Assembly (NCBI RefSeq): GCF_005771675.1 | Contig: NZ_VAJM01000003.1 | Location: 1 to 64,000, forward strand | Length of the DNA stretch: 64,000 nucleotides | Direction of reading: 5' to 3' | DNA from: Hymenobacter jeollabukensis | GTDB lineage: Bacteria; Bacteroidota; Bacteroidia; Cytophagales; Hymenobacteraceae | In this document: positions 16,014-63,877 of the stretch, one piece after another | Layout of the letters: every line of letters begins with the position of its first letter | Position numbering within the stretch: position 1 is the stretch's first letter | Position numbers and translations under genes: made by a program | The notes under the pieces: generated by a model | The model's database searches: none | Seen by the model: only the letters and a program-made list of their open reading frames with translations | Told to the model about the DNA's origin: nothing

Positions 16014-16176
16014 GTGGTGAAATGGCGAGATGGTGAACTGGTGAGTTTAACGTTCTGGCTGCCCTGAATGCGCAAACGGCCCCGGCAACATCTGCTGCCG
16101 GGGCCGTTTGGCTTTCTTGATTTGATCAGGTGCCGCCAGCACGTCAACTCGCCAGTTCACCATCTCGCCATTTCAC
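16014..16176. repeat. Palindromic boundary element A (TGGTGA family)
   Basis: Left arm 16014-16050 and right arm 16141-16176 form an inverted repeat of more than 30 bp with few mismatches. The arms are made of an 8-bp word of the form ATGGTGAR. Just inside the left arm is the core GTTCTG shared with elements B-E. The element begins on the base after the tamL stop and supplies the TGA stop of the convergent amidase gene (16173-16175). A separate terminator hairpin lies in its centre. Confidence 0.85.
16074..16109. terminator. Terminator inside element A
   Basis: Perfect stem AAACGGCCCCGGCA / TGCCGGGGCCGTTT around a short loop, between the convergent tamL and amidase genes. It can act on both strands because the stem ends in A-runs and T-runs. 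Confidence 0.75.
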
Positions 16177-17768
16177 TGTTCCTCCGCCTCCGTCTTACTG
16201 TGGCCGAGGAAGCGCTTGGCGCGGGTGGCTTTCAGGAAGTTTTCGAGGCCGACGGTGATGCGCTCGGCTATCTGCTGCTGAAAGGCCGGGTCGAGCAGGC
16301 GCTTTTCGTCGTCAGGGTTGGAGATGAACGCGGTTTCGACCAGGGCGTTGGGGTATTCAGTGGGGCCGTTCAGGCCGAAGTTGAACGAGCCCACGTTGCC
16401 CCAGGGCGCCAGGCCGGTCTGCTGCATCTGCTCGTAGATGGCGGCCGACAGCGGCCGGAACGCCACGTAGCGGTAAAACGCGGCCGTGCCCTTGGCCTCG
16501 GCCGAGCCGGTGCTGTTGACGTGCACGCTCACCAGCAGCTGGGGCATCAGCTTGCGCAGGCGGCGGATGCGCAGCTCGTTGCCCACGCTCACGTCGGCTT
16601 CGCGGGTCATGAGCACGGTGGCGCCGGCTTTTTCCAGCTCGGCGCGCAGCTTCTGGGCAATGCTCAGCGTGAGCGTCTTCTCCATCACCCCAGCGCTGCC
16701 CACGGCGCCCTGGTTGTCGCCGCCGTGGCCGGCGTCTACGGCCACGGTCAGTCCTTTCAGCTCCAGCCGGGCCGGGGGGCGCCGCACCCGGATGGTCAGC
16801 ACGTTGTTCTGGTAGCCGATGGCGTAGCCCCAGCTCTGGCGGTGCCGCAGGTCGATGACGATGCGGAATACGTCGGGCTGGGGCTGCTCGTAGTACACGT
16901 TGGTGATTTCGCGCAGCCCCGCCCGCTGGGTTATCCAGTTGGTATTGGAGGTAGCCCCGAACACGTCGACGACCAGCCGCGTGGGCTCCAGTTGCAGTTG
17001 CGAGCGGTAGGGCAGGCGTTCCTGCAGGGGCACGCGCACGTAGTCGTACTGCTCGTCGCCGCTCACGCTCCACGAGCCGGTGAGCGACTGGGGCGCGAAG
17101 CCGCCGGGCGGCAGCAGGCGCACGGTTTCATCGGGCACCCAGGCGGTCTGGTTTTCGGCCAGGCGCACGCGCAGGTACTCGCCCACGCGGCCCGTCACGT
17201 GCAGAAGCACCAAGGAGTCGAGGTAGCCGATTTTGGCCCCGCCGAGGCGGTCCTCGCCCAGGCCGTAGTTAAGGTAAGCCAGCGAGGTATTGGTGCGGGC
17301 CAGCTGCGGCAGGGCCGGGTTGAGCAGGCGCACGGTGGTCTTAGTCAGCAGCGAGTCGCGGCGGCCGTCGGGCAGCTGCAGGCGCACCAGCAGCGGCCGG
17401 CCGGCGACGGTGCCCAGCGTGGTATCGGCGGCCTGCACCACGTAGCTGAGCTGGTAGATGCCGCTGCCGCGCTTGCCGTCGGGGGCGGACAGCTCGGTCA
17501 GCGGCACCTCGCGCAGCACTTTGGTCGGCTTGCCATCGGGGCCGGGCAGGCCGGGCGTCAGGGTTTGCAGCACGCTCACCCGGGCACCGGGTTGGGCTTT
17601 CACGCGCAGCTGCAGCCGGTCGCCGGGCTGCAGCCACTGGTCGCGGGCCGGCACCGTTTCCGCCGATTCGAGTAGGCGCTGGGCCGCGGCGGGCAGCGCA
17701 GGGAGCAGGGCGACGAGCAACAGCAGCGGGCCGACGAGCCGGCGCGGGCGGAACCAGGGAGCATTCAT
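16173..17768 (-). CDS. N-acetylmuramoyl-L-alanine amidase (Amidase_3)
   Basis: 531 aa. Sec signal peptide (residues 1-~29, ending PAAAQ), then about 300 residues of beta-rich region including an AMIN-like or SH3-like segment, then the Amidase_3 catalytic domain (~residue 338 on). Zinc ligands and catalytic residues are visible: H348 in VDAGHGG, E363 in MEKTLTL, H416 in SVHVN, and E478 in ALVETAF. The enzyme cleaves the amide bond between N-acetylmuramic acid and L-alanine in peptidoglycan, in the periplasm, usually for daughter-cell separation. Its stop codon lies in palindromic element A. Start ATG at 17768 fits the signal peptide. Confidence 0.92.
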   Translation of the reverse strand: MNAPWFRPRRLVGPLLLLVALLPALPAAAQRLLESAETVPARDQWLQPGDRLQLRVKAQPGARVSVLQTLTPGLPGPDGKPTKVLREVPLTELSAPDGKRGSGIYQLSYVVQAADTTLGTVAGRPLLVRLQLPDGRRDSLLTKTTVRLLNPALPQLARTNTSLAYLNYGLGEDRLGGAKIGYLDSLVLLHVTGRVGEYLRVRLAENQTAWVPDETVRLLPPGGFAPQSLTGSWSVSGDEQYDYVRVPLQERLPYRSQLQLEPTRLVVDVFGATSNTNWITQRAGLREITNVYYEQPQPDVFRIVIDLRHRQSWGYAIGYQNNVLTIRVRRPPARLELKGLTVAVDAGHGGDNQGAVGSAGVMEKTLTLSIAQKLRAELEKAGATVLMTREADVSVGNELRIRRLRKLMPQLLVSVHVNSTGSAEAKGTAAFYRYVAFRPLSAAIYEQMQQTGLAPWGNVGSFNFGLNGPTEYPNALVETAFISNPDDEKRLLDPAFQQQIAERITVGLENFLKATRAKRFLGHSKTEAEEQ

Positions 17769-17812
17769 GCTGCAAAGAAACGGCCCCGGCCGCGCCAGGA
17801 TGCGCCGGGAGG

Positions 17813-19360: not shown

Positions 19361-19411
19361 AGCAGCGGGAAAACGGAGTGGGTAGACCTGGACCGCTGAT
19401 GGGGCAAAAAA

Positions 19412-19448
19412 AGCCGGCAACGCCCGCAGCAGAGGAGCGTTGCCGGCT
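19412..19448 (-). terminator. Rho-independent terminator after the 189-aa lipoprotein gene
   Basis: Stem AGCCGGCAACG / CGTTGCCGGCT followed on the minus strand by seven T residues, about 30 bp downstream of the lipoprotein stop at 19479. This separates that gene from the beta-barrel gene downstream. Confidence 0.85.
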
Positions 19449-19478
19449 GGCAAACGTTGTATGGCGTGGTGCCGGTAT

Positions 19479-20048: not shown

Positions 20049-20102
20049 AGGCGCAGTTTACGCAAGCCGGCGCGCACAAGATGCTGCGGCGCCGGCCCGC
20101 AG

Positions 20103-20681: not shown

Positions 20682-20857
20682 GTGGGGGAATGCAGCCGGA
20701 GCAGACGTGGGGACGCCGTTCCGGGGGGTATTGGTGGAAAGTCGGACGAGGGCAGTAAGCGGCTGGATTAGCGGGATAATCCAATCGTAAACATAAACTT
20801 ACGAAAATATCTTGCGAAGATCTTTGAGTTTTTCTCGGAAAATTCCAGTAGCCCTAG

Positions 20858-21352: not shown

Positions 21353-21419
21353 GGAAAACGCGCGGATGGCAACGATAGAGTTAAACGGACCGCGGATGGG
21401 GATGGACAAGGTACGCCGA

Positions 21420-21460
21420 TAAAAACGGCAGCCGACGACCCGAAGGCCGCCGGCTGCCGC
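21420..21460 (-). terminator. Terminator of metF
   Basis: Stem GCGGCAGCCGGCGGCC paired with GGTCGTCGGCTGCCG around TTCG on the minus strand, followed by five T residues. It lies about 20 bp after the metF stop and before the TPR gene. Confidence 0.8.
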
Positions 21461-21481
21461 TGCGCCCGGGCATTGGAGGGC

Positions 21482-22438
21482 TTAAAACAGGGCCGCCGCC
21501 ACGCGCCGCACGCTGTCGGCCTTGCCCATGCTGTAGTAGTGGAGCACGGGCACGCCGTGGTCCATCAGCTCCCGGCTCTGGTTGATGCACCACTCGATGC
21601 CGATTTCGCGGGCCGCCGCGTTGTCGGGGGCCCGGTGAATGGTGTCGACCAGCTCGTCGGGCAGGTTCAGGAAAAAGGAGCGGGGCAGGGCCGTGAGCTG
21701 GGCCTTGGTGGTGATGGGCTTCAGCCCGGGAATGATGGGCACGTGGATGCCGGCCTCCCGGCAGCGCTTTTCGAAGCTGAAAAACTGCTCGTTGTCGAAA
21801 AACATCTGGGTGACGATGTAGTCGGCGCCGCGGTCCACTTTGTGCTTGAGGTAGCGCAAATCGGCGGCGTGGCTGGGGGCCTCGAAGTGCTTTTCGGGGT
21901 AGCCGGCCGTGCCGATGCAGAAGTCGGTGGCCCAGGTGTCGTCCTGCTCCTCGTCGAGGTAGGCGCCCTTGTTGAGGTCCGATACCTGCCCGATCAGGTC
22001 GCAGGCGTAGGAATGGCCGTCGGGCTCGGGCACGAAGCGGCCTTCCGACTTGATTGGGTCGCCGCGCAGGGCCAGCACGTTGTCGATGCCCAGGAAGTGC
22101 AGGTCGATGAGGGCGTTTTCCGTCTCCTCCTTCGAGAAGCCGCCGCAGATCAGGTGCGGCACGGTGTCCACGTCGAAGCGGTTTTTGATGGCGGCGCAGA
22201 TGCCGACGGTGCCGGGGCGGCGGCGCACGGTTTTCTTTTCCAGCAGGCCGTTGGGGTGCTGCCGGTACACGTACTCCTCGCGGTGATACGTCACGTCGAT
22301 AAACGGCGGCTTGAACTCCATCAGCGGCTCAATGTTGGAAAACAGCGTCTGGATGTTCTCGCCCTTCTTGGGCGGCAGCACTTCAAAGGAAAACTGCGTT
22401 TTGCCGTTGGCGCGGGTCAGGTGCTCGGTGACTTTCAT
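21482..22438 (-). CDS. metF: Methylenetetrahydrofolate reductase
   Basis: 318 aa, normal length for the bacterial enzyme. It reduces 5,10-methylene-THF to 5-methyl-THF with FAD and NAD(P)H, supplying the methyl donor for methionine synthase. The TIM-barrel family is clear from FSFEVLPPKKG near the N-terminus, IDVTYH, ALRGDP (about residue 130), and QMFFDNEQFF (about residue 210). metH lies 270 bp upstream in the same direction, separated by palindromic element K. It may be transcribed with metH or from its own promoter. Confidence 0.95.
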   Translation of the reverse strand: MKVTEHLTRANGKTQFSFEVLPPKKGENIQTLFSNIEPLMEFKPPFIDVTYHREEYVYRQHPNGLLEKKTVRRRPGTVGICAAIKNRFDVDTVPHLICGGFSKEETENALIDLHFLGIDNVLALRGDPIKSEGRFVPEPDGHSYACDLIGQVSDLNKGAYLDEEQDDTWATDFCIGTAGYPEKHFEAPSHAADLRYLKHKVDRGADYIVTQMFFDNEQFFSFEKRCREAGIHVPIIPGLKPITTKAQLTALPRSFFLNLPDELVDTIHRAPDNAAAREIGIEWCINQSRELMDHGVPVLHYYSMGKADSVRRVAAALF

Positions 22439-22452
22439 GGGTGGAAGAGGAA

Positions 22453-22694
22453 GCTCCCCTCCTTTTTGAAGGAGGGGATGCCGTGCCGAAGGCGCGGCTG
22501 GGGTGGTTGCTTCGTTGCTGACGTTGTTTAGCCCGCTGACGTGAATAGATGAGCGGATTTATCCGGCAGGATGGCAGACGTAGCGGTTGGGTGCTCGGCT
22601 GGATGAAAGAAGTTACTATCTGACGGCGCGGACGACGCAACCACCCCAGCCAAGCCTGCGGCTTGGCGTCCCCTCCTTCAAAAAGGAGGGGAGC
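22453..22694. repeat. Palindromic boundary element K (GGAGGGG / CCACCCC family)
   Basis: Two inverted copies of a ~60-bp unit (22453-22511 and 22635-22694) flank an approximately 120-bp centre. Each unit contains its own small hairpin (CCCCTCC, T or A run, GGAGGGG) and then GGCTGGGGTGGTTGC-type sequence. The element fills the space between the metH stop and the metF start. Units of this type recur in many Bacteroidota genomes; I recall this generally and cannot verify it here. Confidence 0.8.
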
Positions 22695-22707: not shown

Positions 22708-26454
<3,747 letters not shown>

Positions 26455-26525
26455 GGCTTTCTGGGTCTAGAGGTGCGCAAGGCGCTATCCAGAAAGCCCC
26501 GGCTACTTCGGAAAGTGCCGGTTTC
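26455..26525 (-). promoter_or_regulatory. Expression platform of the metH riboswitch (start-codon sequestering helix)
   Basis: In the transcript, a central segment (26498-26486, GGCTTTCTGGATA) is exactly complementary to CCAGAAAGCC (26464-26455), which directly abuts the metH AUG. The same central segment is also exactly complementary over 11 nt to the 5' arm of aptamer helix P1 (26637-26627). The two pairings exclude each other. No U-run follows, so control is most simply translational: SAM-bound, start sequestered; SAM-free, aptamer opened and start free. Confidence 0.75.
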
Positions 26526-26640
26526 GCTCATCTTTTCCGAACGCGGCACGAGCCGCCTCGGATGGGAGTTAGCACCTCTGCCGCAGCGGCTGGTTGCTAA
26601 GACGTCACAGGGCCCAGTCCCTCGGTCTTTCTGGATAAGC
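26526..26640 (-). promoter_or_regulatory. SAM-I (S-box) riboswitch aptamer upstream of metH
   Basis: Read on the minus strand, the leader contains the S-box core: GAGGGACTGG, GCCCTGTGA, AGCAACC, then AGGTGCTAACTCC. Helix P1 closes between GCTTATC (26640-26634) and GATGAGC (26532-26526). A P4 hairpin with CGGC-TCGT-GCCG is visible near 26550. This class binds S-adenosylmethionine and represses methionine genes when SAM is high, consistent with the downstream metH. Confidence 0.93.
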
Positions 26641-26645
26641 AGTAG

Positions 26646-31349: not shown

Positions 31350-32447
31350 ATGCGCACTGCTACGCTTCTTTTCCTGGGGCTGCTCACCGTCCAACTAGCC
31401 CAGGCCCAGGCGCCCGGCCGGCCCCAGCCCGCCGGCTCGGGGCTGCAGGCGGCGTATTACAACGGCACCAACTTCCAGCAGCTGGTCCTGCGCCGCCGCG
31501 ACGCCAACATCGACTTCGACTGGAAAAGGCAGCCACCCGTCGACGGGCTCGGGTGGGAGTATTTCTCGGTGCGCTGGGAGGGCTACCTGCTGGCCCCGAC
31601 GACCGGCGAGTACGAGTTTTCGACGGTGATGGACGACGGGCTGCGCGTGTGGGTGGGCGGCAAGCGCATCATCGACGCCTGGCGCGAGCAGGACCACGTG
31701 CCCGCCACCGTGCGCCTGCGCCTGGAGGCCGGCCGCTACTACCGCCTGCGCGTCGACTATTTCCAGACCATCCTCGACAGCCGCGCCGTGCTGCGCTGGC
31801 GCCTGCCCAACGCGGCAGCCCTGCAGACCGTTGGGGCCACCTACATGTTTGCGGCTCTGCCGGCCTCCGCCAAGCCGGTGCCGCCCCCCGCGCCGCCGGC
31901 CCTCGTGGTACGCGCGGCGCCAGCCACCCGTCCGGGGGCGGCCCCGTCGCCAGTCCAGCCCGCCGTGCGCCGAGTAGCCGCCGTCGCGCCACCCCGCCTG
32001 GTGCGGCGCCCGGCGGCCCAGCGGCCCGAGCCAGCTGGGCGCCGGGCGGCAGTTCCGGCCGTGGTGGGCCTGGGCGACTCCCTGCCCGATCTGACCAAGC
32101 TGCGCCGGGGCGAAACCGTGGCCCTGAAGCGGCTATACTTCGGGCAAAGCCAGGCCCGGCTGCTGCCCACTTCCCAGCCCGAGCTGAAGCGGCTGGTGCG
32201 CGTGCTGCAGGAGCAGCCGGCGCTGCGGTTTGAAATAGCCGGCCACACCGACAACGTGGGCGACGCGCAAAAAAATCAGGTACTCTCGGAGCAGCGGGCG
32301 CGGGTGGTGCGGGCGTATCTGGTGCAGCACGGCATCGATTCGGCGCGGCTGACGGCCGTGGGTTACGGCGGCACCCGCCCCGTGGCCGACAACCGCGACC
32401 CGCAGCAGCGCCCGCGCAACCGCCGCGTGGAGCTGGTAGCGCGGTGA
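31350..32447 (+). CDS. PA14-domain OmpA-family protein
   Basis: 365 aa. Signal peptide MRTATLLFLGLLTVQLAQAQ (cleavage about residue 21). A PA14 domain follows (~residues 35-170: GLQAAYYNGTNF, VRWEGYLLAPTTGEYEF, DDGLRVWVGGKRI, YYRLRVDYFQ), often carbohydrate binding. A long Pro/Ala-rich linker (~175-240) leads to an OmpA peptidoglycan-binding domain (~250-365: AGHTDNVG, LSEQRARVVRAYL, GYGGTRPVADN, NRRVEL). It probably tethers to peptidoglycan in the periplasm. The stop is immediately followed by palindromic element F. ATG 31350 was chosen for the signal peptide; the frame is open about 250 bp upstream. Confidence 0.88.
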   Translation: MRTATLLFLGLLTVQLAQAQAPGRPQPAGSGLQAAYYNGTNFQQLVLRRRDANIDFDWKRQPPVDGLGWEYFSVRWEGYLLAPTTGEYEFSTVMDDGLRVWVGGKRIIDAWREQDHVPATVRLRLEAGRYYRLRVDYFQTILDSRAVLRWRLPNAAALQTVGATYMFAALPASAKPVPPPAPPALVVRAAPATRPGAAPSPVQPAVRRVAAVAPPRLVRRPAAQRPEPAGRRAAVPAVVGLGDSLPDLTKLRRGETVALKRLYFGQSQARLLPTSQPELKRLVRVLQEQPALRFEIAGHTDNVGDAQKNQVLSEQRARVVRAYLVQHGIDSARLTAVGYGGTRPVADNRDPQQRPRNRRVELVAR

Positions 32448-32505
32448 CTCGGTGATTTAGTGAGTTGTTGAACCTCAATTCACTAAGTCGCTAAATCACT
32501 CAGTC
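32446..32505. repeat. Palindromic boundary element F
   Basis: Imperfect 27-bp arms (32446-32472 and 32479-32505) with a 6-nt loop, built from a degenerate GTGATTTA / AGTGAGTT 8-bp word. It overlaps the stop codon of the PA14-OmpA gene and may act as its terminator-like structure. Confidence 0.65.
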
Positions 32506-32659
32506 AGCATTCCACCGGTTTCACGGAGTATACCGGGCAAAGTGGGCGGCGGCCATAACCGCGGAGGGGAATCGGGGGTTAGACAGCCATTGCGCCCGCA
32601 GCCGGGTAGCAATCAACTCTGAAAAAACGCCTTTTGCTGGCGCTAATCCCCTTTTTGCC

Positions 32660-34029: not shown

Positions 34030-35040
34030 ATGGCCGCCAAGAAATCTGCTGCCCCCAAAGCCGCCCCCGCCCGCCCGGCGCCTAAGCCCGCCGACGACCC
34101 CAAAGCCGCCGCCAAACCCGCCACGCCCAAAGCCGCCGCGGCCAAAACCAAAGCCCCGGCGCCCAAGCGCGAAAAGCGCCCCACGGCCGCCCAGATGAAG
34201 GAGCACGCCCAGAAGCTGCCCTACCCGGCCAAGCAGGCCGACATGAAGCTCCAGCCCGACTCGAATCTCTCGGGCTACCAGCCCGCCGGCAAGCTCAAGG
34301 GCAAAATCGCGCTGATTACCGGGGCCGACTCGGGCATCGGGCGGGCGGTGGCGCTGGCCTTCGCCATGGAGGGCGCCGACGTGGCCGTGCTCTACAACGA
34401 AAACGACGTGGACGCTAAGGAAACCCAGCGCCTGGTGGAAGGCCAGAAGCGCCGCTGCCTGCTACTGAAGCTGGACGTGCGCGACCCAGAGCAGTGCAAG
34501 CAGGCCGTGCGCCGCACCACCAAGGAGCTGGGCGGGCTGAACGTGCTGGTCAACAACGCCGCCTTCCAGATGGCCCAGGAGAAGTTCGAGGACATCCCGG
34601 AGGAGCAGATCCGCCGCACCTTCGACACCAACATCCTCGGCTACATCTGGCTGGCCCAGGCCGCCATTCCGCACTTGCGCAAGGGCGACAGTATCATCAA
34701 CACCGGCAGCATCGTGGGCCTGACGGGCATTCCGCTGCTGATCGACTACGCCAGCACCAAGTCGGCCATTCACGCCTTCACCAAGAGCCTGGCCCAGTAC
34801 CTGGGCGAGCGGGGCATCCGCGTGAACTGCGTGGTGCCCGGCCCGGTGTGGACGCCCAATATTCCCGGTACCATGCCGCGGGAGGAAATCGAGAAGTTCG
34901 GCCACGAAGTAGCCCTGAAACGCCCCGGCCAGCCCGAGGAAATTGCCCCCGCCTACGTGCTGCTGGCCTCCCAGGACGGCTCCTTCATGACCGGCTCCCT
35001 GGTCCACGTGACCGGCGGCAAAATGAGCAGCGACCAGTAG
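34030..35040 (+). CDS. SDR-family oxidoreductase with Lys/Ala/Pro-rich N-terminal tail
   Basis: 336 aa. Residues 1-~55 are a low-complexity, highly basic KAAP-type tail, unlike normal SDR enzymes. Residues ~90-336 are a classical short-chain dehydrogenase: NAD(P) loop TGADSGIG, NNAA (~residue 176), catalytic Ser in NTGSIVG, YASTK catalytic Tyr/Lys, and a terminal TGGKMSSD. The linker before the core (LPYPAKQADMKLQPDSNLSGY) is typical of the YhdF/YdaD group. First gene of a plus-strand cluster with the GMC oxidoreductase subunits and a GH1-like gene. Its stop is followed directly by palindromic element B. Confidence 0.9.
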   Translation: MAAKKSAAPKAAPARPAPKPADDPKAAAKPATPKAAAAKTKAPAPKREKRPTAAQMKEHAQKLPYPAKQADMKLQPDSNLSGYQPAGKLKGKIALITGADSGIGRAVALAFAMEGADVAVLYNENDVDAKETQRLVEGQKRRCLLLKLDVRDPEQCKQAVRRTTKELGGLNVLVNNAAFQMAQEKFEDIPEEQIRRTFDTNILGYIWLAQAAIPHLRKGDSIINTGSIVGLTGIPLLIDYASTKSAIHAFTKSLAQYLGERGIRVNCVVPGPVWTPNIPGTMPREEIEKFGHEVALKRPGQPEEIAPAYVLLASQDGSFMTGSLVHVTGGKMSSDQ

Positions 35041-35150
35041 GTGAGATGGTGAGGTGGTGAACTGGTGAGTGCCGTTCCGCCTGCGCAAGCTGCGCAGCTG
35101 CGCGCCTCCCAAACATCAAACTCACCAGTTCACCACCTCACCATCTCACC
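35041..35150. repeat. Palindromic boundary element B (TGGTGA family), perfect 30-bp arms
   Basis: Arms 35041-35070 and 35120-35149 are perfect inverted complements, built of GTGAGATG / GTGAGGTG / GTGAACTG 8-bp words. The 49-nt loop (GCCGTTCCGCCTGCGCAAGC...) is closely similar, in the other orientation, to the loop of element D. It fills the gap between the SDR stop (35040) and the ATG of the next gene (35153). Confidence 0.92.
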
Positions 35151-35152: not shown

Positions 35153-35746
35153 ATGAAATACCCCCCCGGTACCGTTCGGGCCCTGCTCGATACGCCCCAC
35201 GTGAGCGACGCCACCCGCGCCGCTTTGCAAGCGCGGCTTGATGCCCCGGCCTACGAGCCGCAGTTTTTCGATGCCGACAGCTACCGGCTGCTCGGGGCGG
35301 TGTGCGCCCGGTTGCTGCCCCAGCCCGAGCGCGGTGCCGAGGCCATCGACCTGCCCGCCGGTATTGATGCGCGCCTGCTCAGCGGCCTGGCCGACGGCTG
35401 GCGCTACGACGCACTGCCGCCCGACCGCGAAGCCTACCGCCTTGGCCTGGGCGGCATTCAGCAGGCGGCGCAGGCGCAGTTTCAGCAGGATTTCCTGGCG
35501 CTGAGCGCCGAGCAGCAGGACCAGGTGCTGGCCGCCGTGCAGGCCGGCACGGCCCCCGGCGACCTATGGCTGAAAGTCGAGGCCCGGCGCTTTTTCGAGG
35601 AGTTGCTGGCCGAAGCCACTGCCCTGTACTACTCCCACCCGCTGGCCCAGGAAGAAATCGGCTACGTCGGCATGGCCGACCTGCCCGCCTGGACGCGCAT
35701 CGGCCTCGATGAGCGCGAAGAGCGGGAACCGCTGGAAGTGAAATAG
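35153..35746 (+). CDS. Gluconate 2-dehydrogenase subunit 3-family protein
   Basis: 197 aa. Small-subunit family of GMC-type sugar and gluconate dehydrogenases; it stabilises the catalytic flavoprotein. Family-like stretches are YRLLGAVCARLLPQPE (residues ~42-57), FQQDFLALSAEQQDQVLAAVQ, and FFEELLAEATALYYSHP followed by IGYVGM. No signal peptide is seen, unlike many Tat-exported members. ATG 35153 sits immediately after element B. The GMC large subunit starts 102 bp downstream, so the two should form one enzyme. Its last codons and stop run into element C. Confidence 0.88.
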   Translation: MKYPPGTVRALLDTPHVSDATRAALQARLDAPAYEPQFFDADSYRLLGAVCARLLPQPERGAEAIDLPAGIDARLLSGLADGWRYDALPPDREAYRLGLGGIQQAAQAQFQQDFLALSAEQQDQVLAAVQAGTAPGDLWLKVEARRFFEELLAEATALYYSHPLAQEEIGYVGMADLPAWTRIGLDEREEREPLEVK

Positions 35747-35842
35747 TGAGATGGTGAAATGGTGAGTTTGGCGTTCTGACGCCACTCCATTTTACCATGC
35801 TGCCGCTCACTATTTCACCATCTCACCATCTCACCATCTCAC
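35738..35842. repeat. Palindromic boundary element C (TGGTGA family)
   Basis: Left arm 35738-35766 and right arm ~35806-35842 of TGGTGA / TCACCA words, loop with core GCGTTCTG. The right arm has three tandem copies of CACCATCT. The left arm encodes the last codons (Val-Lys-stop) of the small-subunit gene, and the right arm ends 6 bp before the GTG start of the GMC gene. Confidence 0.82.
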
Positions 35843-55204: not shown

Positions 55205-55307
55205 GGTGAAATGGTGAGATAGTGAAATAGTGAGTGCTGTTCCGAATGCCTGAACGTCGAACCCACCAATTCACCACCTCTCCATCTCCCCACCTCCCCA
55301 TCTCACC
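55205..55307. repeat. Palindromic boundary element E (TGGTGA family, degenerate)
   Basis: Left arm 55205-55235 (GTGAAATGGTGAGATAGTGA words) and right arm 55262-55307 (CACCA / CTCCCCA words) with the loop core GCTGTTCCGAATGCC. It sits between the divergent queA and ABC permease genes and ends 3 bp before the permease ATG. Confidence 0.75.
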
Positions 55308-56591: not shown

Positions 56592-56701
56592 GTCATGTCG
56601 AGCGCAGTCGAGACATCTCGCGGGCTGACGCTTGATAGTAGCGTTCTGTTCAACGAGCAGATTACTATCCAGCGAGATGTCTCGACTGCGCTCGACATGA
56701 C
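56592..56701. repeat. Palindromic boundary element I (GTCATGTCGAGC family), perfect 30-bp arms
   Basis: Arms 56592-56621 and 56672-56701 are exact inverted complements (GTCATGTCGAGCGCAGTCGA...). A nested inner pair, GATAGTA (56634-56640) and TACTATC (56663-56669), continues the palindrome. It begins 18 bp after the ABC permease stop. The outer sequence matches the inner part of composite element J. Confidence 0.92.
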
Positions 56702-56939: not shown

Positions 56940-57803
<864 letters not shown>

Positions 57804-57824
57804 CCGACTTCAGCGCAGCTGCGC

Positions 57825-57856: not shown

Positions 57857-57967
57857 TTTTACCACTGTTGATCTGTAGTTTGGTTATATGATATTAATTC
57901 AGTTATATGAAGTCGTGTTATTGTGCCCAAACGAATGTTGGCCGTTTTCCCTCACCCACCCTCTCTT

Positions 57968-58600
57968 ATGAATCCTACCAAACACGTCTACATCATTCCG
58001 CGCTGGGGCGGCAACTCCAGCAGCGACTGGTACCCCTGGCTGAAGCAGCAGCTGGAACAGGCCGCGGCCGAGGATGGCTGCCGCTACGAAGTGCACCCGC
58101 TGGACATGCCCGCCTGGGACGTGCCCGTTATCAGCCAAGCCGTGGAGCACCTGGCTAAGCTGCTGCCGCCCGCCAAACTAGCCGAGCAGGAGGTGTACCT
58201 GGTGGGCCACAGCGTGGGCTGCCTGGCTATTCTGCACTACCTGGCCGAAATCAACAAGCAAGACCCCAGCGCCCGGGTGGGCGGGGTGCTGTGCGTGGCC
58301 GGCTGGTTTATGGTGGATAGCCCCTGGCAGGATATCCTGCACTGGATGAACGCGCCCATCGACTACGAGCAGGCCCGCCAGGCGATTCCCGAAGACAAGC
58401 TGATGGTGCTGCTCTCGGACGATGACCCGTATACTTCGGCGTACCAGCAAAACGAAAAGCTGTGGCTGGAGCGCCTGCAGGCCCGCGTGAGCATTCTGCA
58501 CGGTCGGCAGCACTTCAGCGCCCAGCTGGACCTCGACGTACGCGACGCCGTGCGCGACCTGGCCGGTGCCTTCGACCATACTGAAACGCTGCGCCGGTAG
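57968..58600 (+). CDS. RBBP9/YdeN-family serine hydrolase (copy 1)
   Basis: 210 aa from ATG 57968. Small alpha/beta hydrolase: KHVYIIPRWGGNSSSDWYPWL start, nucleophile S82 in VGHSVGC, Asp in LLSDDDPYT (D151-D153), His in GRQHFS (H182). The YdeN/RBBP9 family includes human RBBP9, whose substrates are poorly known. It is a tandem paralogue of the next gene, so a duplication occurred here. Own terminator follows; separate transcript from copy 2 is likely. Confidence 0.9.
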   Translation: MNPTKHVYIIPRWGGNSSSDWYPWLKQQLEQAAAEDGCRYEVHPLDMPAWDVPVISQAVEHLAKLLPPAKLAEQEVYLVGHSVGCLAILHYLAEINKQDPSARVGGVLCVAGWFMVDSPWQDILHWMNAPIDYEQARQAIPEDKLMVLLSDDDPYTSAYQQNEKLWLERLQARVSILHGRQHFSAQLDLDVRDAVRDLAGAFDHTETLRR

Positions 58601-58714
58601 CCTGCCAAAACTGCCCGTTAACGGGCCTGAGCACTGCTTTTGAAGGCAACTCTGATATAGGCGCTTTAGCGCTTAAACATGCGTGATTAGCGCGGTGAAT
58701 CTTGTTGTTCCCGA

Positions 58715-58750
58715 AGAGAAGCTCCGGCGTTTACCGGGGCTTCTCTTTTT
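58715..58750 (+). terminator. Terminator after hydrolase copy 1
   Basis: Stem AGAGAAGCTCCGG / CCGGGGCTTCTCT followed by TTTT, about 115 bp downstream of the stop at 58600. Confidence 0.8.
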
Positions 58751-58867
58751 GGGAAAATAAGGCCATTTTGGGAAGGTGTAAGTAAATCAGGTTCCGACGT
58801 TTATACTTAGCCAATAATCAGTGGGCCGACAGAGCAGATACCGGGCCCGGCACGCAAATTATCTGGC

Positions 58868-59500
58868 ATGGTTCCTACCAAACACGTCTACATCATTCCG
58901 CGCTGGGGCGGCAACTCGGGCAGCGACTGGTACCCCTGGCTGAAGCAGCAGCTCGAAGCTTCTTCCGCCGAAGACCAGTGCCACTACGAAGTGAAGCCGC
59001 TGGACATGCCCGCCTGGCAGATTCCGACCGTCAGTAATGCTGCCGATTACCTGGCGGCAATGCTGCCGGCGGAGCGGCTGCGCCAGGAGGAAACCTACCT
59101 GGTGGGGCACAGCGTGGGCTGCCTGGCTATTCTGCACCACTTAGCCGAAATCAACAAGAAGGACCCGGAGCTGCAAGTGGGTGGGGTGCTGTGCGTGGCC
59201 GGCTGGTTTCTCATCGACAACCCCTGGCAGGATATCCTGAACTGGATGAACGCCCCGGTGGACTACGACCGGGCCCGGCGCGCCATTCCGGCCGATAAGC
59301 TGGTGGTCATGCTTTCCGACGACGACCCCTACACCACGGGTTACCAGCAGAATGAAAAACTGTGGCTGGAGCGCCTGCAGGCCCGCGTCAATATCCTGCC
59401 GGGGCGGCAGCACTTCAGCAACGCCCTCGACCCGGACGTGTGCGACGCCATCCGCGACATGACCGGGGCTTTTCTGCCGCCCTGGCTGGCCCGCGCGTAG
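58868..59500 (+). CDS. RBBP9/YdeN-family serine hydrolase (copy 2)
   Basis: 210 aa, same length and triad as copy 1 (GHSVGC, LSDDDPYT, GRQHFS). Large blocks are identical to copy 1 (KHVYIIPRWGGNS, VGGVLCVAGWF, YQQNEKLWLERLQARV), and variable stretches are concentrated at ~residues 30-65 and at the C-terminus. Copies share DNA identity over the 5' region as well, so duplication is fairly recent. Its distinct upstream sequence suggests separate regulation. Confidence 0.9.
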   Translation: MVPTKHVYIIPRWGGNSGSDWYPWLKQQLEASSAEDQCHYEVKPLDMPAWQIPTVSNAADYLAAMLPAERLRQEETYLVGHSVGCLAILHHLAEINKKDPELQVGGVLCVAGWFLIDNPWQDILNWMNAPVDYDRARRAIPADKLVVMLSDDDPYTTGYQQNEKLWLERLQARVNILPGRQHFSNALDPDVCDAIRDMTGAFLPPWLARA

Positions 59501-59574
59501 CCCCGCCGACCCGGAATCCGTAGCTTGGGGCGGGGCCGGAACGTCAAGGCCCCGTCACGCTACGTTTCTACCGA

Positions 59575-60747
59575 TTGGAGCCCGAATACGACTACCTATT
59601 GGCCGGCGGCGGCGCGGCGGGCCTGAGCATGGCCTACTATATCAGCCAGGAGCCGCGCCTGCAAGGCAAGCGCGTGCTGCTGCTGGAGCCCGCCGCCAAA
59701 GACCAGAACGACCGGACCTGGTCGTTCTGGACGGACCAGCCCACGCCCTACGACGCCGTGCTGGCGGCCGAGTGGCGGCAGCTGGCATTTCGCAGCCCGC
59801 GGTTTTCGGCCGTGCTGCCGCTGCGGCGCTACCGCTACTGCACCCTGCGGGGCATCGACTTTTACCGCTTCGTGCAGGCGGCGCTGGCGGCCCGGCCGGC
59901 GCAGTTTACGCGCGTGCCGGCCCACGTCGAGGAGCTGACGAACACGCCCGGCGGCGTGCGGGCCCGCACCTCGGCCGGCGAGTTTACGGCCCGTTACGTC
60001 TTCGATAGCCGCCCGCCCCAACCCGTGCCGCGGCCCGACCGGCGCTACCTCTGGCAGCACTTTCTGGGCTGGGAAGTGGAAACGGATTTCGACGCGTTCG
60101 ATGCCACGACGCCGGTGTTTATGGACTTCACCGTCGAGCAGCAGCGGGAGTGCCGCTTCGTGTACGTGCTGCCCTTCGGCCCGCGCCGGGCGCTGGTGGA
60201 GTACACGCTGTTTTCGGGGCAGCTGCTGCCACCGGCCGAATACGAGGCCGCATTACGGCAATATTTGGCCACGATGCTGGCCAGCCGGCCGTACCGCGTG
60301 GTGGAAACGGAAACCGGCGCCATTCCGATGACCGACCACCCGTTTCCGGCCCGCGACGGGGCCAATATCGTGAACCTGGGCACCCGCGGCGGGCGCGTGA
60401 AGGCCAGCACCGGCTACGCCTTTCTGCGCATGCAGCAGCAAGCCGCCCGCCTCACCGAGGCCCTTGCCACCACCGGCACCCTGCCCGCCGACCTGACCGG
60501 GGACCAGTGGCAGTTCCGCTTTTTCGACAGCCTGCTGCTCGACATCATGCAGCGCCGGGGCGAGGGGACGCGCGACATTTTCGCCGAGCTGTTTCAGCGC
60601 AACCCGGTGGAGCGCATCCTGGATTTTCTAGACGAGCGCACCACCTGGCCCGAAAACCTGCGGGTGATGAACTCCGTGACGCCCTGGCCATTTCTGCGCT
60701 CCATCGGGCAGGTGCTGCTGGGCCGGCCAGGGAAGAGGGCGGAATGA
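59575..60747 (+). CDS. crtY: Lycopene cyclase family protein
   Basis: 390 aa with TTG start at 59575. FAD/NAD loop YLLAGGGAAGLSMAYY at the N-terminus, the family motif NDRTWSFW (~residue 45), FMDFTVEQQ and LPFGPRRALVEYTLFS. Lycopene beta-cyclases form the rings of carotenoids from lycopene with reduced FAD. Many Hymenobacter are red from such pathways; no other crt gene is in the window. The stop is followed directly by palindromic element G. Confidence 0.88.
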   Translation: MEPEYDYLLAGGGAAGLSMAYYISQEPRLQGKRVLLLEPAAKDQNDRTWSFWTDQPTPYDAVLAAEWRQLAFRSPRFSAVLPLRRYRYCTLRGIDFYRFVQAALAARPAQFTRVPAHVEELTNTPGGVRARTSAGEFTARYVFDSRPPQPVPRPDRRYLWQHFLGWEVETDFDAFDATTPVFMDFTVEQQRECRFVYVLPFGPRRALVEYTLFSGQLLPPAEYEAALRQYLATMLASRPYRVVETETGAIPMTDHPFPARDGANIVNLGTRGGRVKASTGYAFLRMQQQAARLTEALATTGTLPADLTGDQWQFRFFDSLLLDIMQRRGEGTRDIFAELFQRNPVERILDFLDERTTWPENLRVMNSVTPWPFLRSIGQVLLGRPGKRAE

Positions 60748-60872
60748 TCAATTATCAATGAGCAATGAAGAATGAGGAATTGGCGTAACCGGGCCGGCAG
60801 GCAGGCGTAGCCTCATTGCTCATTGCTCATTGCTCATTGCTCATTGCTCATTGCTCATTGCTCATTGCTCAT
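60748..60872. repeat. Palindromic boundary element G with eight TCATTGC heptamers
   Basis: Right arm: eight perfect tandem copies of TCATTGC (60813-60868) plus a partial unit to 60872. Left arm (60748-~60780): degenerate GAGCAAT / GAAGAAT words, complementary in pattern. It separates the convergent crtY and ABC ATPase genes. The last codons and stop (TGA) of the ATPase gene lie inside the heptamer array. Confidence 0.88.
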
Positions 60873-61640
60873 CAGGCTCGCTTCGTTTTCCAGCCACGCG
60901 CGGGCGGCGTCGACGGTGGCGCGGCTGAGGGGCTGGAGCTGGGGCTCGGGGGCCGACATGTTCAGCAGGTAGCCGGGCATGGCGGGGAGCTGCTCCAGGT
61001 CGTGGGTGATGCAGAGGATGGTTTTGCGGTATTCCTGGCCCCAGCGGCGCAGCAGGCTGAACACGCGGCGGCGGTAGTACACGTCGAGCTGCTGGGTGGG
61101 CTCGTCGAGCAGCCAGAGGGCGGCGTCCTGCAGCCGGAGCTGGGCCAGCCACACGAGCTGCTGCTCGCCGCCGGAGAGCAGCGTGAAGTCGCGGTGGGCG
61201 AGGTGGACGGCGCCCACTTCCTGCAGGGCCGCATCGGCCTGGGCGTAGTCGGCCGGGGTGTAGCCGGCCAGCAGGCCGCGGTGCTGCCGAAAGCGGCCCA
61301 TCACCACCAGCTCGCGCACTTCGATGGGGAAGCCCACCACATTGCGCTGCGGCAGGTGAGCCAGCAGGCCCTCCACGGCCGGGCGGCGCACCGTGCGCAG
61401 GTCGCGGCCCGCTATTTCAACGGTGCCCTGGTAAGGCAGCTGGCCCGTCAGCACCCGGAACAGGGTGGTTTTGCCGGCGCCGTTGTGGCCCACAATGGCG
61501 ACAAAGGCGCCCTGGGGTACCGACAAAAAAAGGTTGCGGAGCAGAACGCGTCGTTCGTACCCCGCAACCAGATTGTCCGCGCGCAGCGCGAGAGGAGAGT
61601 TGGCAGTTGTCAGTTGCGAGTTGTCAGTTGATAGACTCAT
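60855..61640 (-). CDS. ABC transporter ATP-binding protein (orphan)
   Basis: 261 aa from ATG 61640. Walker A GHNGAGKT (51-58), Q-loop LPQRN, signature LLSGGEQQL, Walker B LWLLDEPT, and switch His ITHD. Gene order in the ATPase domain resembles the iron-siderophore/vitamin B12 FecE/BtuD class. No permease or binding protein adjoins it. Residues 2-~16 (SLSTDNSQLTTANS) are encoded by the arm of palindromic element H, and the C-terminal MSNEQ by the heptamers of element G, so both ends are repeat-derived. Confidence 0.85.
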   Translation of the reverse strand: MSLSTDNSQLTTANSPLALRADNLVAGYERRVLLRNLFLSVPQGAFVAIVGHNGAGKTTLFRVLTGQLPYQGTVEIAGRDLRTVRRPAVEGLLAHLPQRNVVGFPIEVRELVVMGRFRQHRGLLAGYTPADYAQADAALQEVGAVHLAHRDFTLLSGGEQQLVWLAQLRLQDAALWLLDEPTQQLDVYYRRRVFSLLRRWGQEYRKTILCITHDLEQLPAMPGYLLNMSAPEPQLQPLSRATVDAARAWLENEASLMSNEQ

Positions 61641-61694
61641 CAGGCAGGCGGCTTGGGGCCGGTAAAGATCCTGACAACTGACAACTACTAACTG
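61598..61694. repeat. Palindromic boundary element H (AGTTGTC heptamer family)
   Basis: Left arm 61598-61633 is five AGTTGxx heptamers (GGC, GTC, GCG, GTC, GAT variants); right arm 61671-61694 reads GACAACT words. It lies between the DUF2795 stop (61699) and the ABC ATPase, and covers the ATPase start codon at 61638-61640. Confidence 0.8.
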
Positions 61695-61698
61695 GCTC

Positions 61699-61920
61699 CT
61701 AATACTCGTCCTCGTTGAACATGAAGTCCTCCTTGGTCGGGTAGTCCGGCCACACTTCCTCGATGCTTTCGTAGGGCTGGCCGTCGTCTTCGAGGGCTTG
61801 CAGGTTTTCCACGACTTCCATCGGGGCGCCCGAGCGGATCGAGTAGTCAATCAGCTCGTCTTTGGTGGCCGGCCAGGGAGCATCTTCCAGGTACGAGGCA
61901 AGTTCAAGGGTCCAGTACAT
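61699..61920 (-). CDS. DUF2795 domain protein
   Basis: 73 aa, acidic. Opens MYWTLELASYLEDAPWPATKDELIDYSIRSGAP, the DUF2795 pattern (a single small domain, often with PATKxELI), and ends with an acidic tail DYPTKEDFMFNEDEY. No transmembrane segment or signal. The family is small and uncharacterised; a regulatory or nucleic-acid-related role has been suggested only loosely. Confidence 0.88.
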   Translation of the reverse strand: MYWTLELASYLEDAPWPATKDELIDYSIRSGAPMEVVENLQALEDDGQPYESIEEVWPDYPTKEDFMFNEDEY

Positions 61921-61980
61921 AGTCAGGGTGTGCGTAAAAAAGGGGGGAAGTTGAGAAAGGGTATCGGGCGCGGCGCCCGC

Positions 61981-62008
61981 AAAAATCCGGCCGAGGGGTG
62001 GCCGGCCG
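61981..62008 (-). terminator. Terminator of the DUF349 gene
   Basis: Minus-strand stem CCGGCC-ACCCC-type with CGGCCGG followed by ATTTTT, about 60 bp beyond the stop at 62070. Confidence 0.65.
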
Positions 62009-62069
62009 ACAAGGCGTCAGGAAAGGGCCGCGTATTGGGCTGACAACGCAAACGCGGCCGAAATGTTGG

Positions 62070-63374
62070 CTACTGCTGGTAGCGCAGGCGGAGGAATTCG
62101 ATGAGGTCGTTTTTGGTGCGGATTTTCCGTTCGAACGCCCGGATTTTGCTCTGCAGCATGCTGCGGAACGCCTCGTTGCCGGGCGTATCGGTGAGCTTGC
62201 CCAGGTTTTCCTCCAGCACGGCCTGCTCCTGCCGGTCGTACTTGATGAAGTCCTTGAGCGCGGCCACGCGCTGCGCGTACTGCTCGTCGGCCGGGGGCTT
62301 GGGGCCTTCCTGGGGCTGACGCTTCCGAATATAGTGCTCCAGCGAGCTTAGTTCAAACACCCGGTCGCAGGCCGAAAGGAAGGCTTCCCACACGCGGTCC
62401 GACTCGGGGCCGCGCACGGGGCCGACCTTTTTCCAGGCCGTTTGCAGCTCCTTGGCGCGGGCCACGGCCTCGTGCATGGGACGCTCCACCAGGGCTTCGG
62501 CTTCCTTCACCAGGTCGCGCTTGCGGGTGAGGTTGTCGTCCATGTAGTGGTCCTTGGCCTCGCTGCGCTTGGAGCTGATGTGTTCCTTCAGGCGGTCGAA
62601 GAAGCGGTTGTGGGCGGCGCGGAAGCGCGTCCACAGGTCATTAGCCGTCTTGCGGGGCAAGGAGCCGCCCACGTCCTTCCACTGCTGCTGCAGCTCCTTG
62701 AGCTGGGCCGTGACGCCTTCCCAGTCGTCGGAGTTCTGCAGGGCTTCGGATTTGTGGATGAGCGACTTGTACTTCTCAAACGCCCGGTTGGTCATGGCCT
62801 TTTTATCGGCCTGGAATGCTTTCTTACGGGTGTAGAAGTCTTCGACGGCGGCCTGGAAACGGTTTTCCATGTCGTCGGTCAGCTCCTTGGCCACCGGGCC
62901 GGTCTTGATCCAGGCCTGGCGCAGGTCCTTGAGCACCTCGGCGCCGGCCTGCCAGTCGACGCTGGTATGCAGGGCCTCGGCTTCCTCGATGATTTTGGCC
63001 TTGGTGGCGAGGTTTTTTTCGCGGTTGCGCGAGACGAGGGTGCGAATCTGCTCCTCGGCCTCGGTGAGGCGCTCGTGCAGGGCGGTGAAGTCGCCGAGGC
63101 CGTCGTAGGCGCCGATCTGCTCCTTCAGGTGCAGGGCCTTCATCAGGAACGAGCCCTTGTTCTCGGATTCGTCGATGCGCGCCAGCAGGCCGTCGACCTT
63201 GGTGCGGAAGCTCTCGAACCGCTGCGCGAAGTACATCAGCGCGGCGTCCTCGGTGTCTTTTACCTGCCCGACCTGGCGGGCGGGGAATTCCATGAAGGGC
63301 TTGAGCCAGACTTGGTCGCCTTCGATGTAGCCAAACTGACGGGCCTGGGTGAGCAGCTGGGTTTGCTGTTCCAT
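62070..63374 (-). CDS. DUF349 domain protein
   Basis: 434 aa, soluble and mostly helical with several DUF349 repeats (~70 residues each, W-K-x-x-G motifs: WKDVGGSLPRKTANDLWTRFRAAHNRFFDRLKEH, WKKVGPVRGPESDRVWEAFLSACDRVF). Coiled-coil-like heptads throughout. DUF349 proteins are common in Bacteroidota and uncharacterised. The start MEQQTQLLTQARQFGYIEGDQVWLKPFMEF is typical of the Bacteroidota members. Neighbouring genes give no functional hint. Confidence 0.92.
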   Translation of the reverse strand: MEQQTQLLTQARQFGYIEGDQVWLKPFMEFPARQVGQVKDTEDAALMYFAQRFESFRTKVDGLLARIDESENKGSFLMKALHLKEQIGAYDGLGDFTALHERLTEAEEQIRTLVSRNREKNLATKAKIIEEAEALHTSVDWQAGAEVLKDLRQAWIKTGPVAKELTDDMENRFQAAVEDFYTRKKAFQADKKAMTNRAFEKYKSLIHKSEALQNSDDWEGVTAQLKELQQQWKDVGGSLPRKTANDLWTRFRAAHNRFFDRLKEHISSKRSEAKDHYMDDNLTRKRDLVKEAEALVERPMHEAVARAKELQTAWKKVGPVRGPESDRVWEAFLSACDRVFELSSLEHYIRKRQPQEGPKPPADEQYAQRVAALKDFIKYDRQEQAVLEENLGKLTDTPGNEAFRSMLQSKIRAFERKIRTKNDLIEFLRLRYQQ

Positions 63375-63658
63375 ACGGATACTAACCTACTGAATAGGTG
63401 CGGGGTGGTGGGTGGCGGAAAACGTCAAACGCACAAGTTTACGGGTTTCGTAACGACTTGACGGTACGTAGGCAGACGAGCTTGGTTAGGCAATAAAAGG
63501 AATGCGCGGCAGTCGGCGCTGGCATCCGCTGCCGGAAGTTGCATTAGAACCTATATATGACGCAAGTAAACTTTGCGGGCTGTGTTCTGTAGCGCGGCTG
63601 GCGTAGCTTTGTGAAAGCGGTGTGACCAGCTGAACAACGGCGGGCACCTGCTGCGAAA
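63375..63658. other. Intergenic region with no gene seen
   Basis: About 280 bp upstream of the DUF349 gene and before composite element J. It must hold the DUF349 promoter, probably in the first 120 bp. No exact -33/-7 pair or RNA gene was recognised. Confidence 0.4.
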
Positions 63659-63877
63659 GAACGTCATGCGGACCCTACCGAAGCAGCGCTACCGCTTCGT
63701 TTGCCTCACATTGCACGTCATTCCGAGCTTGTCGAGGAATCTCGCGTGCTGACGTCCAAGGGTAACTTGCTCGTTGAGTTTACTCTCCAGCATCAGCACG
63801 CAAGATGTCTCGACTTCGCTCGACATGACGAACGCACGAAGCGGTAGCGCTGCTTCGGTAGGGTCCGCATGACGTTC
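63659..63877. repeat. Composite nested palindrome J, perfect 42-bp outer arms
   Basis: Outer arms 63659-63700 and 63836-63877 are exact inverted complements (GAACGTCATGCGGACCC...). A second, imperfect palindrome of the GTCATnnCGAGC family (63715-63753 and 63791-63830, similar to element I) is nested inside. The element ends 38 bp before the ettA start. Confidence 0.9.

What the first reader, a model, noticed from the sequence alone, without database searches (positions are those of the whole stretch)
16014..63877. Eleven long palindromic elements sit exactly at gene boundaries
Elements A-K (16014, 22453, 32446, 35041, 35738, 50448, 55205, 56592, 60748, 61598, 63659) are long inverted repeats placed within a few bases of stop or start codons. 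Five share a TGGTGA-type arm word and a related loop core. Others use TCATTGC, AGTTGTC, GTCATGTCGAGC or GGAGGGG words but keep the same plan: word-built arms and a distinct loop. Copies carry unequal numbers of words and complementary arms, which suggests active copying and repair of a structured element. No transposase or RAYT gene was seen in the window to explain them.
Basis: partly seen in the sequence, partly recalled or inferred. Interest (0 to 1): 0.78.

Follow-up and report, generated by a model that had tools for sequence, protein, structure and literature searches.

The report
Word-swapping hairpins between bacterial genes
In Hymenobacter bacteria many tight gaps between neighbouring genes are filled by a DNA hairpin built from a repeated 7-8-letter word, and related species sometimes carry a hairpin at the same gap built from a different word, which points to an unexplained copy-and-replace process.

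Summary
The palindromes are real, but of two kinds. (1) Six of the eleven (A, C, D, E, F, G) belong to one dispersed ~112-nt family with TGGTGARN octamer arms; I and J are other word families (AATGAGC, AGTTGTC). (2) B, H and K are long non-periodic palindromes; H and K look like CGTC-type REP pairs, a known class.

In 864 kb of this genome, 45 of 667 junctions carry word-armed hairpins. Arm period is 7 or 8 in 37 of the 38 clearest. They fill tight gaps (24 of 103 tight tandem junctions, 11 of 358 loose). The two arms covary, and fully typed copies are oriented with transcription (19 against 2).

Main result: at orthologous junctions a ~92% identical sister has a word-armed hairpin at 18 of 27 such sites against 6 of 254 others. 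At 6 of the 18 the word differs (four clearly unrelated, two possibly variants).

A sister that carries these elements has no RAYT or reverse transcriptase hit. I favour a non-autonomous hairpin family kept palindromic by template switching and replaced element-for-element at stalled-fork hairpins; the replacement step is inferred. The nearest precedent is one locus, the Nostoc trnL P6b stem.

The parts
16017..16176 (.). A: TGGTGA word arms around a bidirectional terminator (AACGGCCCCGGCAAC...), convergent genes
   Evidence: same terminator-bearing form at four other convergent junctions (L242, L248, L249, C1:525857)
22453..22694 (.). B: 63-nt arms CTCCCCTCCTTTTTGAAGGAGGGG...; non-periodic palindrome
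32426..32525 (.). C: degenerate TGGTGA-family hairpin at a gene end; in sister G002 the gap is 106 nt longer and holds a longer version
35040..35150 (+). D: type copy, 31-bp perfect arms, reaching from the stop codon of one gene to 2 nt before the next start
35738..35842 (+). E: TGGTGA hairpin whose left arm supplies the upstream gene's stop codon
50446..50563 (-). F: TGGTGA hairpin filling the gap between two minus-strand genes; other words at this site in G006, G001 and H. gummosus
55205..55305 (.). G: TGGTGA hairpin with diverged right arm, in a divergent gap; TTGTGAA-type in G006, ATGGCTAA in H. gummosus
56592..56701 (.). H: GTCATGTCGAG... non-periodic palindrome, CGTC-REP-like pair; H. 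gummosus has a TGGTTAAA word hairpin at this junction
60743..60872 (.). I: AATGAGC heptamer arms, 8.7 copies on the right
61598..61690 (.). J: AGTTGTC heptamer arms; other words in H. gummosus, G005 and H. fodinae, the same word in G006
63658..63878 (.). K: 43-nt perfect outer arms (GTCATGCGGACC...) with a second palindrome family nested in the loop

Best explanation
A, C-G, I and J are word-armed intercistronic hairpins: non-autonomous dispersed DNA elements, mostly 75-200 nt. Their two arms are tandem runs of a 7- or 8-nt word and are reverse complements around a loop of mostly 10-150 nt. Shown by computation: (a) one family (TGGTGARN) has dozens of full-length copies including the loop; (b) elements prefer tight gaps between genes, mostly tandem pairs, often with ends within a few nt of stop and start codons; (c) the two arms of one element change together; (d) at orthologous junctions the closest sister usually keeps a word-armed hairpin, and in a minority of cases its word is different. 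Inferred: being transcribed in an operon, the element folds into a long mRNA hairpin, and as single-stranded DNA it stalls replication. Template switching at the hairpin copies one arm onto the other (the quasipalindrome mechanism). Occasional switching to another hairpin elsewhere in the genome overwrites the resident element from gene end to gene end, because only changes that stop at the genes survive. Just over half of the arms carry stop codons in all three frames on the incoming strand, which would make landing on a gene end harmless.
For: Dispersal: 308 (overlapping) word matches genome-wide, control 0; 82 blastn matches to a 2.2-kb query spanning D and E in this genome, many of the listed ones covering the whole 112-nt element; 20-copy alignment with 75% mean column identity, loop included. 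Period: 38 periodic stems of 175, at period 7 (20), 8 (17), 9 (1) among lags 5-12. Placement: word-armed hairpins at 24 of 103 tight (residual gap <=30) and 11 of 358 loose tandem junctions, odds ratio 9.6, p 1e-9; both ends within 20 nt of genes in 30 of 45, against 15 of 69 other stems with loops >=11. Arms: free letters agree 2.86 of 4 within against 2.23 of 4 between elements, 0 of 10000 permutations (42 elements); 18 cells with paired double changes against 8.1 in shuffles, 0 of 500, and covariation score 0 of 500; both-sides changes 32 against 11.3 expected in 26 alignable elements versus G002 and 63 against 30.1 in 16 versus G006. Orientation: 19 against 2 among fully typed tandem copies, p 2e-4. 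Replacement: G002 hairpin at 18 of 27 own hairpin sites against 6 of 254 others, p 5e-17; G006: 7 of 18 against 0 of 125; 6 of the 18 in G002 share under 20% of 6-mers; sequences. No RAYT or RT hit in G006, which carries word hairpins.
Against: The replacement step is not observed, only inferred from end states; whole-allele exchange between strains or insertion hot spots could give the same picture. Loops at most replaced sites look unrelated by eye, so a homology-driven switch needs a first contact that I cannot show; a shared loop motif across word families was not clear (5 of 25 non-TGGTGA loops against a shuffled maximum of 4 for one motif, 3 of 25 against a mean of 3.0 for the other). 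At two of the six differing sites (464, 535) the words are similar (AATTATG, AATTAAA/AATTAAG), so part of the change may be gradual. In one search two of five measures do not exceed the shuffles (pairs changed on both sides 6 against 4.6, 99 of 500; further pair types 20 against 19.4, 227 of 500). Among half-typed tandem copies the orientation bias is weak (12 fit, 8 oppose). With other sisters co-occupancy is lower: G005 2 of 12, G001 1 of 5, G004 0 of 4 own hairpin sites. Gap figures depend on my own gene finder. The range looks narrow.
Confidence: 0.5

Rival explanations
1. Transposition with hot spots: MITE- or REPIN-like elements of several families move by an unidentified transposase that favours stop-start junctions; old elements are lost and new ones land at the same places.
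For: Loops differ at most replaced sites; dozens of near full-length copies; site preference is strong.
Against: Own-hairpin sites without a shared word still hold another word in 6 of 15, against 3 of 46 tight junctions without an own hairpin (p 0.005), so tightness alone does not explain it. G005 and G006 have no Y1_Tnp hit. No clean target duplication was seen in the filled/empty pairs shown, though none was searched for systematically. At site D a leader motif kept by G005, G001 and G004 is absent in own, G002 and G006, that is, replaced rather than interrupted.
Confidence: 0.25
2. Ordinary hairpins under selection: operon junctions need an RNA hairpin (3'-end protection, partial termination, insulation of translation), and only structure is conserved while sequence drifts through slippage and compensatory change.
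For: Strong folding, covariation, tandem junctions and orientation with transcription, a terminator-bearing form at convergent junctions.
Against: Drift cannot produce dozens of loci sharing word and loop, nor easily a jump from GGTGAGAT to GTAGGGTA at site 604 between ~92% identical relatives.
Confidence: 0.12
3. Allele exchange: homologous recombination in the flanking genes swaps whole junctions between strains that carry different elements.
For: Would give clean whole-gap replacement with unrelated loops.
Against: Explains spread of alternatives, not their origin. The flanking genes at these sites were not examined for recombination tracts.
Confidence: 0.13

Closest known systems
P6b stem-loop of the Nostoc tRNA-Leu(UAA) intron (Kaasalainen 2015, PMC4476775; passages read)
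   Same: Stem built on one of two distinct 7-nt repeat motifs (TDNGATT or NNTGAGT); whole stem-loops repeatedly replaced by the other motif while the structure is kept; evolutionary origin unresolved.
   Different: One locus inside an intron in cyanobacteria; here many intergenic loci, many words, dispersed copies, mostly between tandem protein genes.
STRR heptamers and TAACTGA direct repeats (Beggiatoaceae, Cyanobacteria, five Bacteroidetes; PMC4679880, passages read)
   Same: 7-nt words, intergenic, close to start codons, patchy across phyla.
   Different: Reported as direct repeats (169 sets, one indirect); in the passages seen, not as complementary arms of hairpins. STRR itself is recalled, not read.
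CGTC- and GTAG-tagged REPs and REPINs (PMC3733652, passages read)
   Same: Small palindromes in high copy; the paper found no dedicated transposase for the CGTC kind; H and K resemble these.
   Different: Word-armed hairpins have periodic arms, no GTAG/CGTC tag in the listed copies, and different families occupy one site in different species.
ERIC / intergenic repeat units (search listings and starts of abstracts only; details recalled)
   Same: ~110-130 nt imperfect palindromes in intergenic regions.
   Different: No tandem-word arms and no word replacement recalled.
Quasipalindrome template switching (PMC8604942, passages read; PMC7202029, start of abstract in listing)
   Same: Known process that homogenises inverted-repeat arms.
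   Different: Explains arm identity, not dispersal or word replacement.

Membership tests
RAYT-mobilised REP/REPIN | Cognate RAYT (Y1_Tnp) in the genome | tested here: not met
   One Y1_Tnp match in this genome, flanked by different palindromes; none in G005 and G006, which carry word hairpins. A divergent enzyme below the model's reach is possible.
RAYT-mobilised REP/REPIN | GTAG tag beside a short-loop hairpin | tested here: not met
   By inspection, the TGGTGA copies listed are bounded by GGTGA-type words and TCACC-type complements, and no recurrent GTAG end is seen; not scored by a script.
CGTC-tagged REP pair (elements H and K) | CGTC at one end, 8-9 bp stem, dimer | tested here: inconclusive
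   H and K read CGTCAT... at an end and are inverted pairs; stem, loop and tail rules of PMC3733652 were not scored. B has no CGTC start.
MITE | Target-site duplication and an autonomous partner | tested here: inconclusive
   No duplication was visible in the filled/empty pairs shown, but few were clean; no partner element sought beyond Y1_Tnp and RVT_1.
STRR-type heptamer repeats | Tandem runs of a 7-nt word | tested here: met
   I: CTCATTG (a rotation of the complement of AATGAGC) 8.7 copies; J: AGTTGTC 4.7 copies. The TGGTGA family has period 8.
trnL P6b word stem | Located in the group I intron of trnL | tested here: not met
   Elements lie between protein genes; no tRNA gene in the window.
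Ordinary intrinsic terminator | Short GC-rich stem with small loop and T-run, after a gene | tested here: not met
   Arms mostly 20-40 bp, loops mostly over 20 nt; 35 of 45 between tandem genes and 4 at divergent junctions. Some loops contain a terminator.
ERIC/IRU | Sequence match to the ERIC consensus | not tested
   No ERIC sequence was used; the Rfam search of the window gave only a SAM riboswitch.

The most novel reading that the evidence does not exclude
A general process needing no dedicated transposase rewrites whole hairpins in place: an operon-junction hairpin acts as an acceptor that is repeatedly overwritten by hairpins from elsewhere in the genome. Position and plan are then inherited while the 7-8-nt word and loop are not, and each species drifts to its own words. 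The same process would explain the heptanucleotide stem swaps in cyanobacterial trnL introns.
Probability: 0.3. Interest if true: 0.9.

Novelty: new variant of a known kind. Interest (0 to 1): 0.76.

Why it matters
Heptamer repeats in bacteria and the word-swapping P6b stem in Nostoc lack a known mechanism in the papers I saw. Here the same plan occurs at dozens of junctions in one genome, with sister species at 82-93% identity showing alternative states of the same site. That makes the question directly testable: which process keeps the site and the fold but replaces the sequence? It would also show a route by which intergenic DNA in operons is renewed wholesale, and it warns that intergenic hairpins with no sequence conservation can still be positionally conserved.

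Tried and rejected
RAYT or reverse transcriptase as the engine: no Y1_Tnp hit in G005 and G006, no RVT_1 hit in six of eight genomes. Shared loop core across word families: not clear. A letter test with a strict arm pattern gave only 4 own pairs and p 0.13; a looser reading gave 42 and 0 of 10000. Gap-by-block alignment to sisters was too coarse and was replaced by gene-anchored junctions. Tables for H. gummosus, G001 and G004 are small (14-16 junctions); at the stem threshold G001 and G004 show no co-occupancy, and by the word-armed classification G001 shows 1 of 5, G004 0 of 4, H. gummosus 2 of 3. Plasmid collection: no match to D. Phylum-wide exact word-pair patterns: one search hit this genome and one other of 296; one search hit two others and not this genome. 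These patterns are very insensitive (one place in this genome). Literature searches for Hymenobacter or Bacteroidetes palindromes listed nothing on this; subscription papers are not held.

Rows dropped: junction segments over 800 nt or under 25 nt (667 kept of 698), stems with loops under 11 nt (69 kept of 96), elements too different to align (29 of 55 for G002, 10 of 26 for G006, 10 of 12 for G005); elements inside called genes (4 of 68), 42 of 71 stems had readable words, and of 51 tandem copies 21 had the two different ends typed, 1 had two like ends, 20 had one end typed (12 fit, 8 oppose) and 9 none. For one search, I chose 20 of 71 copies by eye for similar length and type, which may favour good pairing. 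Loci were chosen from matches, so counts that include them are not an unbiased sample; counts from C1:1-800000 plus the window are. Classification uses random shuffles, so small shifts occur (G006: 7 hairpin sites, 6). On recounting for this report I changed: the six differing words are four clearly unrelated and two possibly variants; one search includes this genome itself; four, not five, of the nine unmatched G002 sites keep word remnants.
Full report
What was checked. The window lies in a 6.18-Mb Hymenobacter-type genome (27 contigs; nearest named relatives Hymenobacter sp. 15J16-1T3B, H. gummosus and Hymenobacter sp. CRA2). Inverted repeats exist at all eleven places, C and J being weak. 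In 864 kb of this genome (window plus C1:1-800000) I called genes with a small codon-pair model (41 and 659 genes) and searched each junction for a stem with a loop of at least 9 nt. Score >=16 was reached by 131 of 667 junctions, 1 of 667 shuffled copies and 5 of 667 windows inside genes.

Two kinds. Listing all 131 shows long non-periodic palindromes (GTCATGTCGAG..., GTCATTGCGAG..., GTCATCCTGAG..., CTCCCCTCC...), terminator-like stems, and word-armed hairpins. Among 175 stems of score >=13, 38 have periodic arms: period 7 in 20, 8 in 17, 9 in 1, none at 5, 6 or 10-12. B, H and K are of the first kind. H and K resemble the CGTC-tagged REPs of PMC3733652 (passages read), which that paper says apparently lack a dedicated transposase.

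Placement. A wider classification gives 45 word-armed hairpins, 96 other stems and 526 without. The word-armed ones lie at 35 tandem, 6 convergent and 4 divergent junctions; 30 of 45 have both ends within 20 nt of genes against 15 of 69 other stems; the median gap left outside the element is 14 nt against 90 nt. Tight tandem junctions are occupied in 24 of 103 cases, loose ones in 11 of 358. Arms read towards the loop have stops in all three frames in 49 of 90 cases, read the other way in 4 of 90. Periods of 7 and 8 are not multiples of 3, so a word holding TGA, TAA or TAG closes every frame if repeated enough. AGTTGTC is an exception.

The TGGTGA family. Counting beyond C1 with loci picked clusters gave 71 with a stem; 64 lay outside called genes and 35 of these had both ends within 5 nt of, or overlapping, a gene. 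Twenty chosen copies align over arms and loop at 75% mean column identity. The two ends differ: a GCCGTTCTG-type end and a GATGTTCGGGAGGC-type end. In 21 of 51 tandem copies both different ends could be typed, and the first faced the upstream stop codon in 19 (p 2e-4). Twenty copies with one typed end are less clear (12 fit, 8 oppose), and one had two like ends. A form with the terminator AACGGCCCCGGCAAC in the loop was seen at five places, all convergent (A, L242, L248, L249, C1:525857). The word itself is specific: 308 matches against 0 for the reversed pattern.

Arms change together. Free letters of the words agree more within an element than between elements (2.86 against 2.23 of 4; 0 of 10000 permutations; 42 elements). 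In the 20-copy alignment 18 cells have changes on both sides that keep pairing, against 8.1 expected (0 of 500), and the covariation score exceeds all shuffles; the number of pairs changed on both sides (6 against 4.6) and of pair types (20 against 19.4) does not. The tool warns that relatedness alone can exceed its shuffles. Between orthologues, pairs with both sides changed number 32 against 11.3 expected for G002 (21 still pair) and 63 against 30.1 for G006 (43 still pair) (this set mixes all stem kinds and leaves out elements too different to align). Element selection by stem score favours pairing somewhat.

Word replacement at the same junction. Orthologous junctions were found by matching 300 nt inside both flanking genes (281 junctions in G002 at 92.1% mean identity). 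Own word-armed sites are word-armed in G002 in 18 of 27 cases, other own sites in 6 of 254. For other sisters: G006 7 of 18 against 0 of 125, G005 2 of 12 against 1 of 51, G001 1 of 5 against 0 of 10, G004 0 of 4 against 0 of 12, H. gummosus 2 of 3 against 2 of 11. Of the 18 in G002, 12 share the word and 6 share under 20% of 6-mers; two of the six (464, 535) look like variants of one AATT word. Examples: site 456 has AATTATG-type, AGGAGTTAG-type and ATGTGCTA-type words in own, G002 and G006; site 481 has AATTAAT in own, AGTTTAAG in both G002 and G005, and another in G006; site 604 has GGTGAGAT in own and GTAGGGTA in G002. In the window, site F has TGGTGA (own, G002), GTGAACTT-type (G006) and ATGGCTAA-type (G001, H. 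gummosus) words; J has AGTTGTC in own and G006 but other words in H. gummosus, G005 and H. fodinae. Tightness alone is not enough: among own-hairpin sites without a shared word 6 of 15 hold another word, against 3 of 46 tight junctions without an own hairpin (p 0.005). On the other side: 9 of 27 own sites were not classed as word-armed in G002; reading the sequences by eye, four of these (32, 404, 499, 515) still have word remnants and five (37, 359, 401, 459, 599) are empty or hold something else. At D, species lacking the element (G005, G001, G004) keep a leader motif CACACCCGGC that is absent in own, G002 and G006, so gain looks like replacement.

Engine. This genome has one Y1_Tnp match, flanked by its own different palindromes, and one reverse transcriptase match. 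G005 and G006 have no Y1_Tnp match and G006 no RVT_1 match, yet both carry word hairpins. The window itself shows no mobile-element gene among 40 of 41 scanned (7 of the 40 matched no family).

Reading. Shown: dispersal, placement, orientation in fully typed copies, arm covariation, positional persistence with word change at a minority of sites. Inferred: template switching as the cause of arm identity (a known process, PMC8604942, passages read) and ectopic switching as the cause of replacement. The closest precedent is the P6b stem of Nostoc trnL introns, built on one of two 7-nt motifs and repeatedly replaced as a whole (PMC4476775, passages read). TAACTGA direct repeats share word length and patchy spread (PMC4679880, passages read). 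I found no report of word-armed hairpins replacing each other genome-wide in the listings of searches of an open-licence library, which is not proof that none exists.

Range. Of 20 loci of about 21 kb (8 other Hymenobacter, 12 other genera or unplaced Cytophagales), H. gummosus had five hits, H. siberiensis one, the other 18 none; shuffled copies of ten loci gave 0. The scan undercounts: H. fodinae gave none although site J there shows words by eye. An exact AGTTGTC hairpin pattern hit this genome and one other of 296 Bacteroidota genomes, an exact AATTAAG pattern two others, with 0 in controls. The abundance seen here is therefore probably a feature of some lineages.

Noticed in passing
window 26525-26641 (-): SAM riboswitch (Rfam RF00162, 74 bits) directly upstream of a B12-dependent methionine synthase gene at 22708-26454; the next gene on that strand (21482-22438) is MTHFR.
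   Followed up: no
L031 1320-2110 (G000 C3): The only Y1_Tnp/RAYT match of the genome is flanked by its own palindromes (GTGGTACTACGACT and an inverted GTTGCTGACGTTGAAC pair), unlike the word hairpins.
   Followed up: partly
A; L242; L248:5133-5327; L249; C1:525857-526020: A version of the TGGTGA element with one terminator type in the loop was seen at five places, all convergent. Two other copies (C1:179539, convergent; C1:389060, tandem) have different terminator-like hairpins in the loop.
   Followed up: partly
window 63658-63878: K has two palindrome families nested concentrically, one inside the loop of the other.
   Followed up: no
C1:669453-669719: Own genome has a 50-bp perfect palindrome where G002 keeps only its outer nine bases on each side around a different short core.
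   Followed up: no
window 57968-59500: Two adjacent Ser_hydrolase (PF06821) genes, possibly a tandem duplication.
   Followed up: no
L295 (G000 C8:880-1557): A 580-aa open frame with a strong RVT_1 match; six of seven sister genomes have no match.
   Followed up: no
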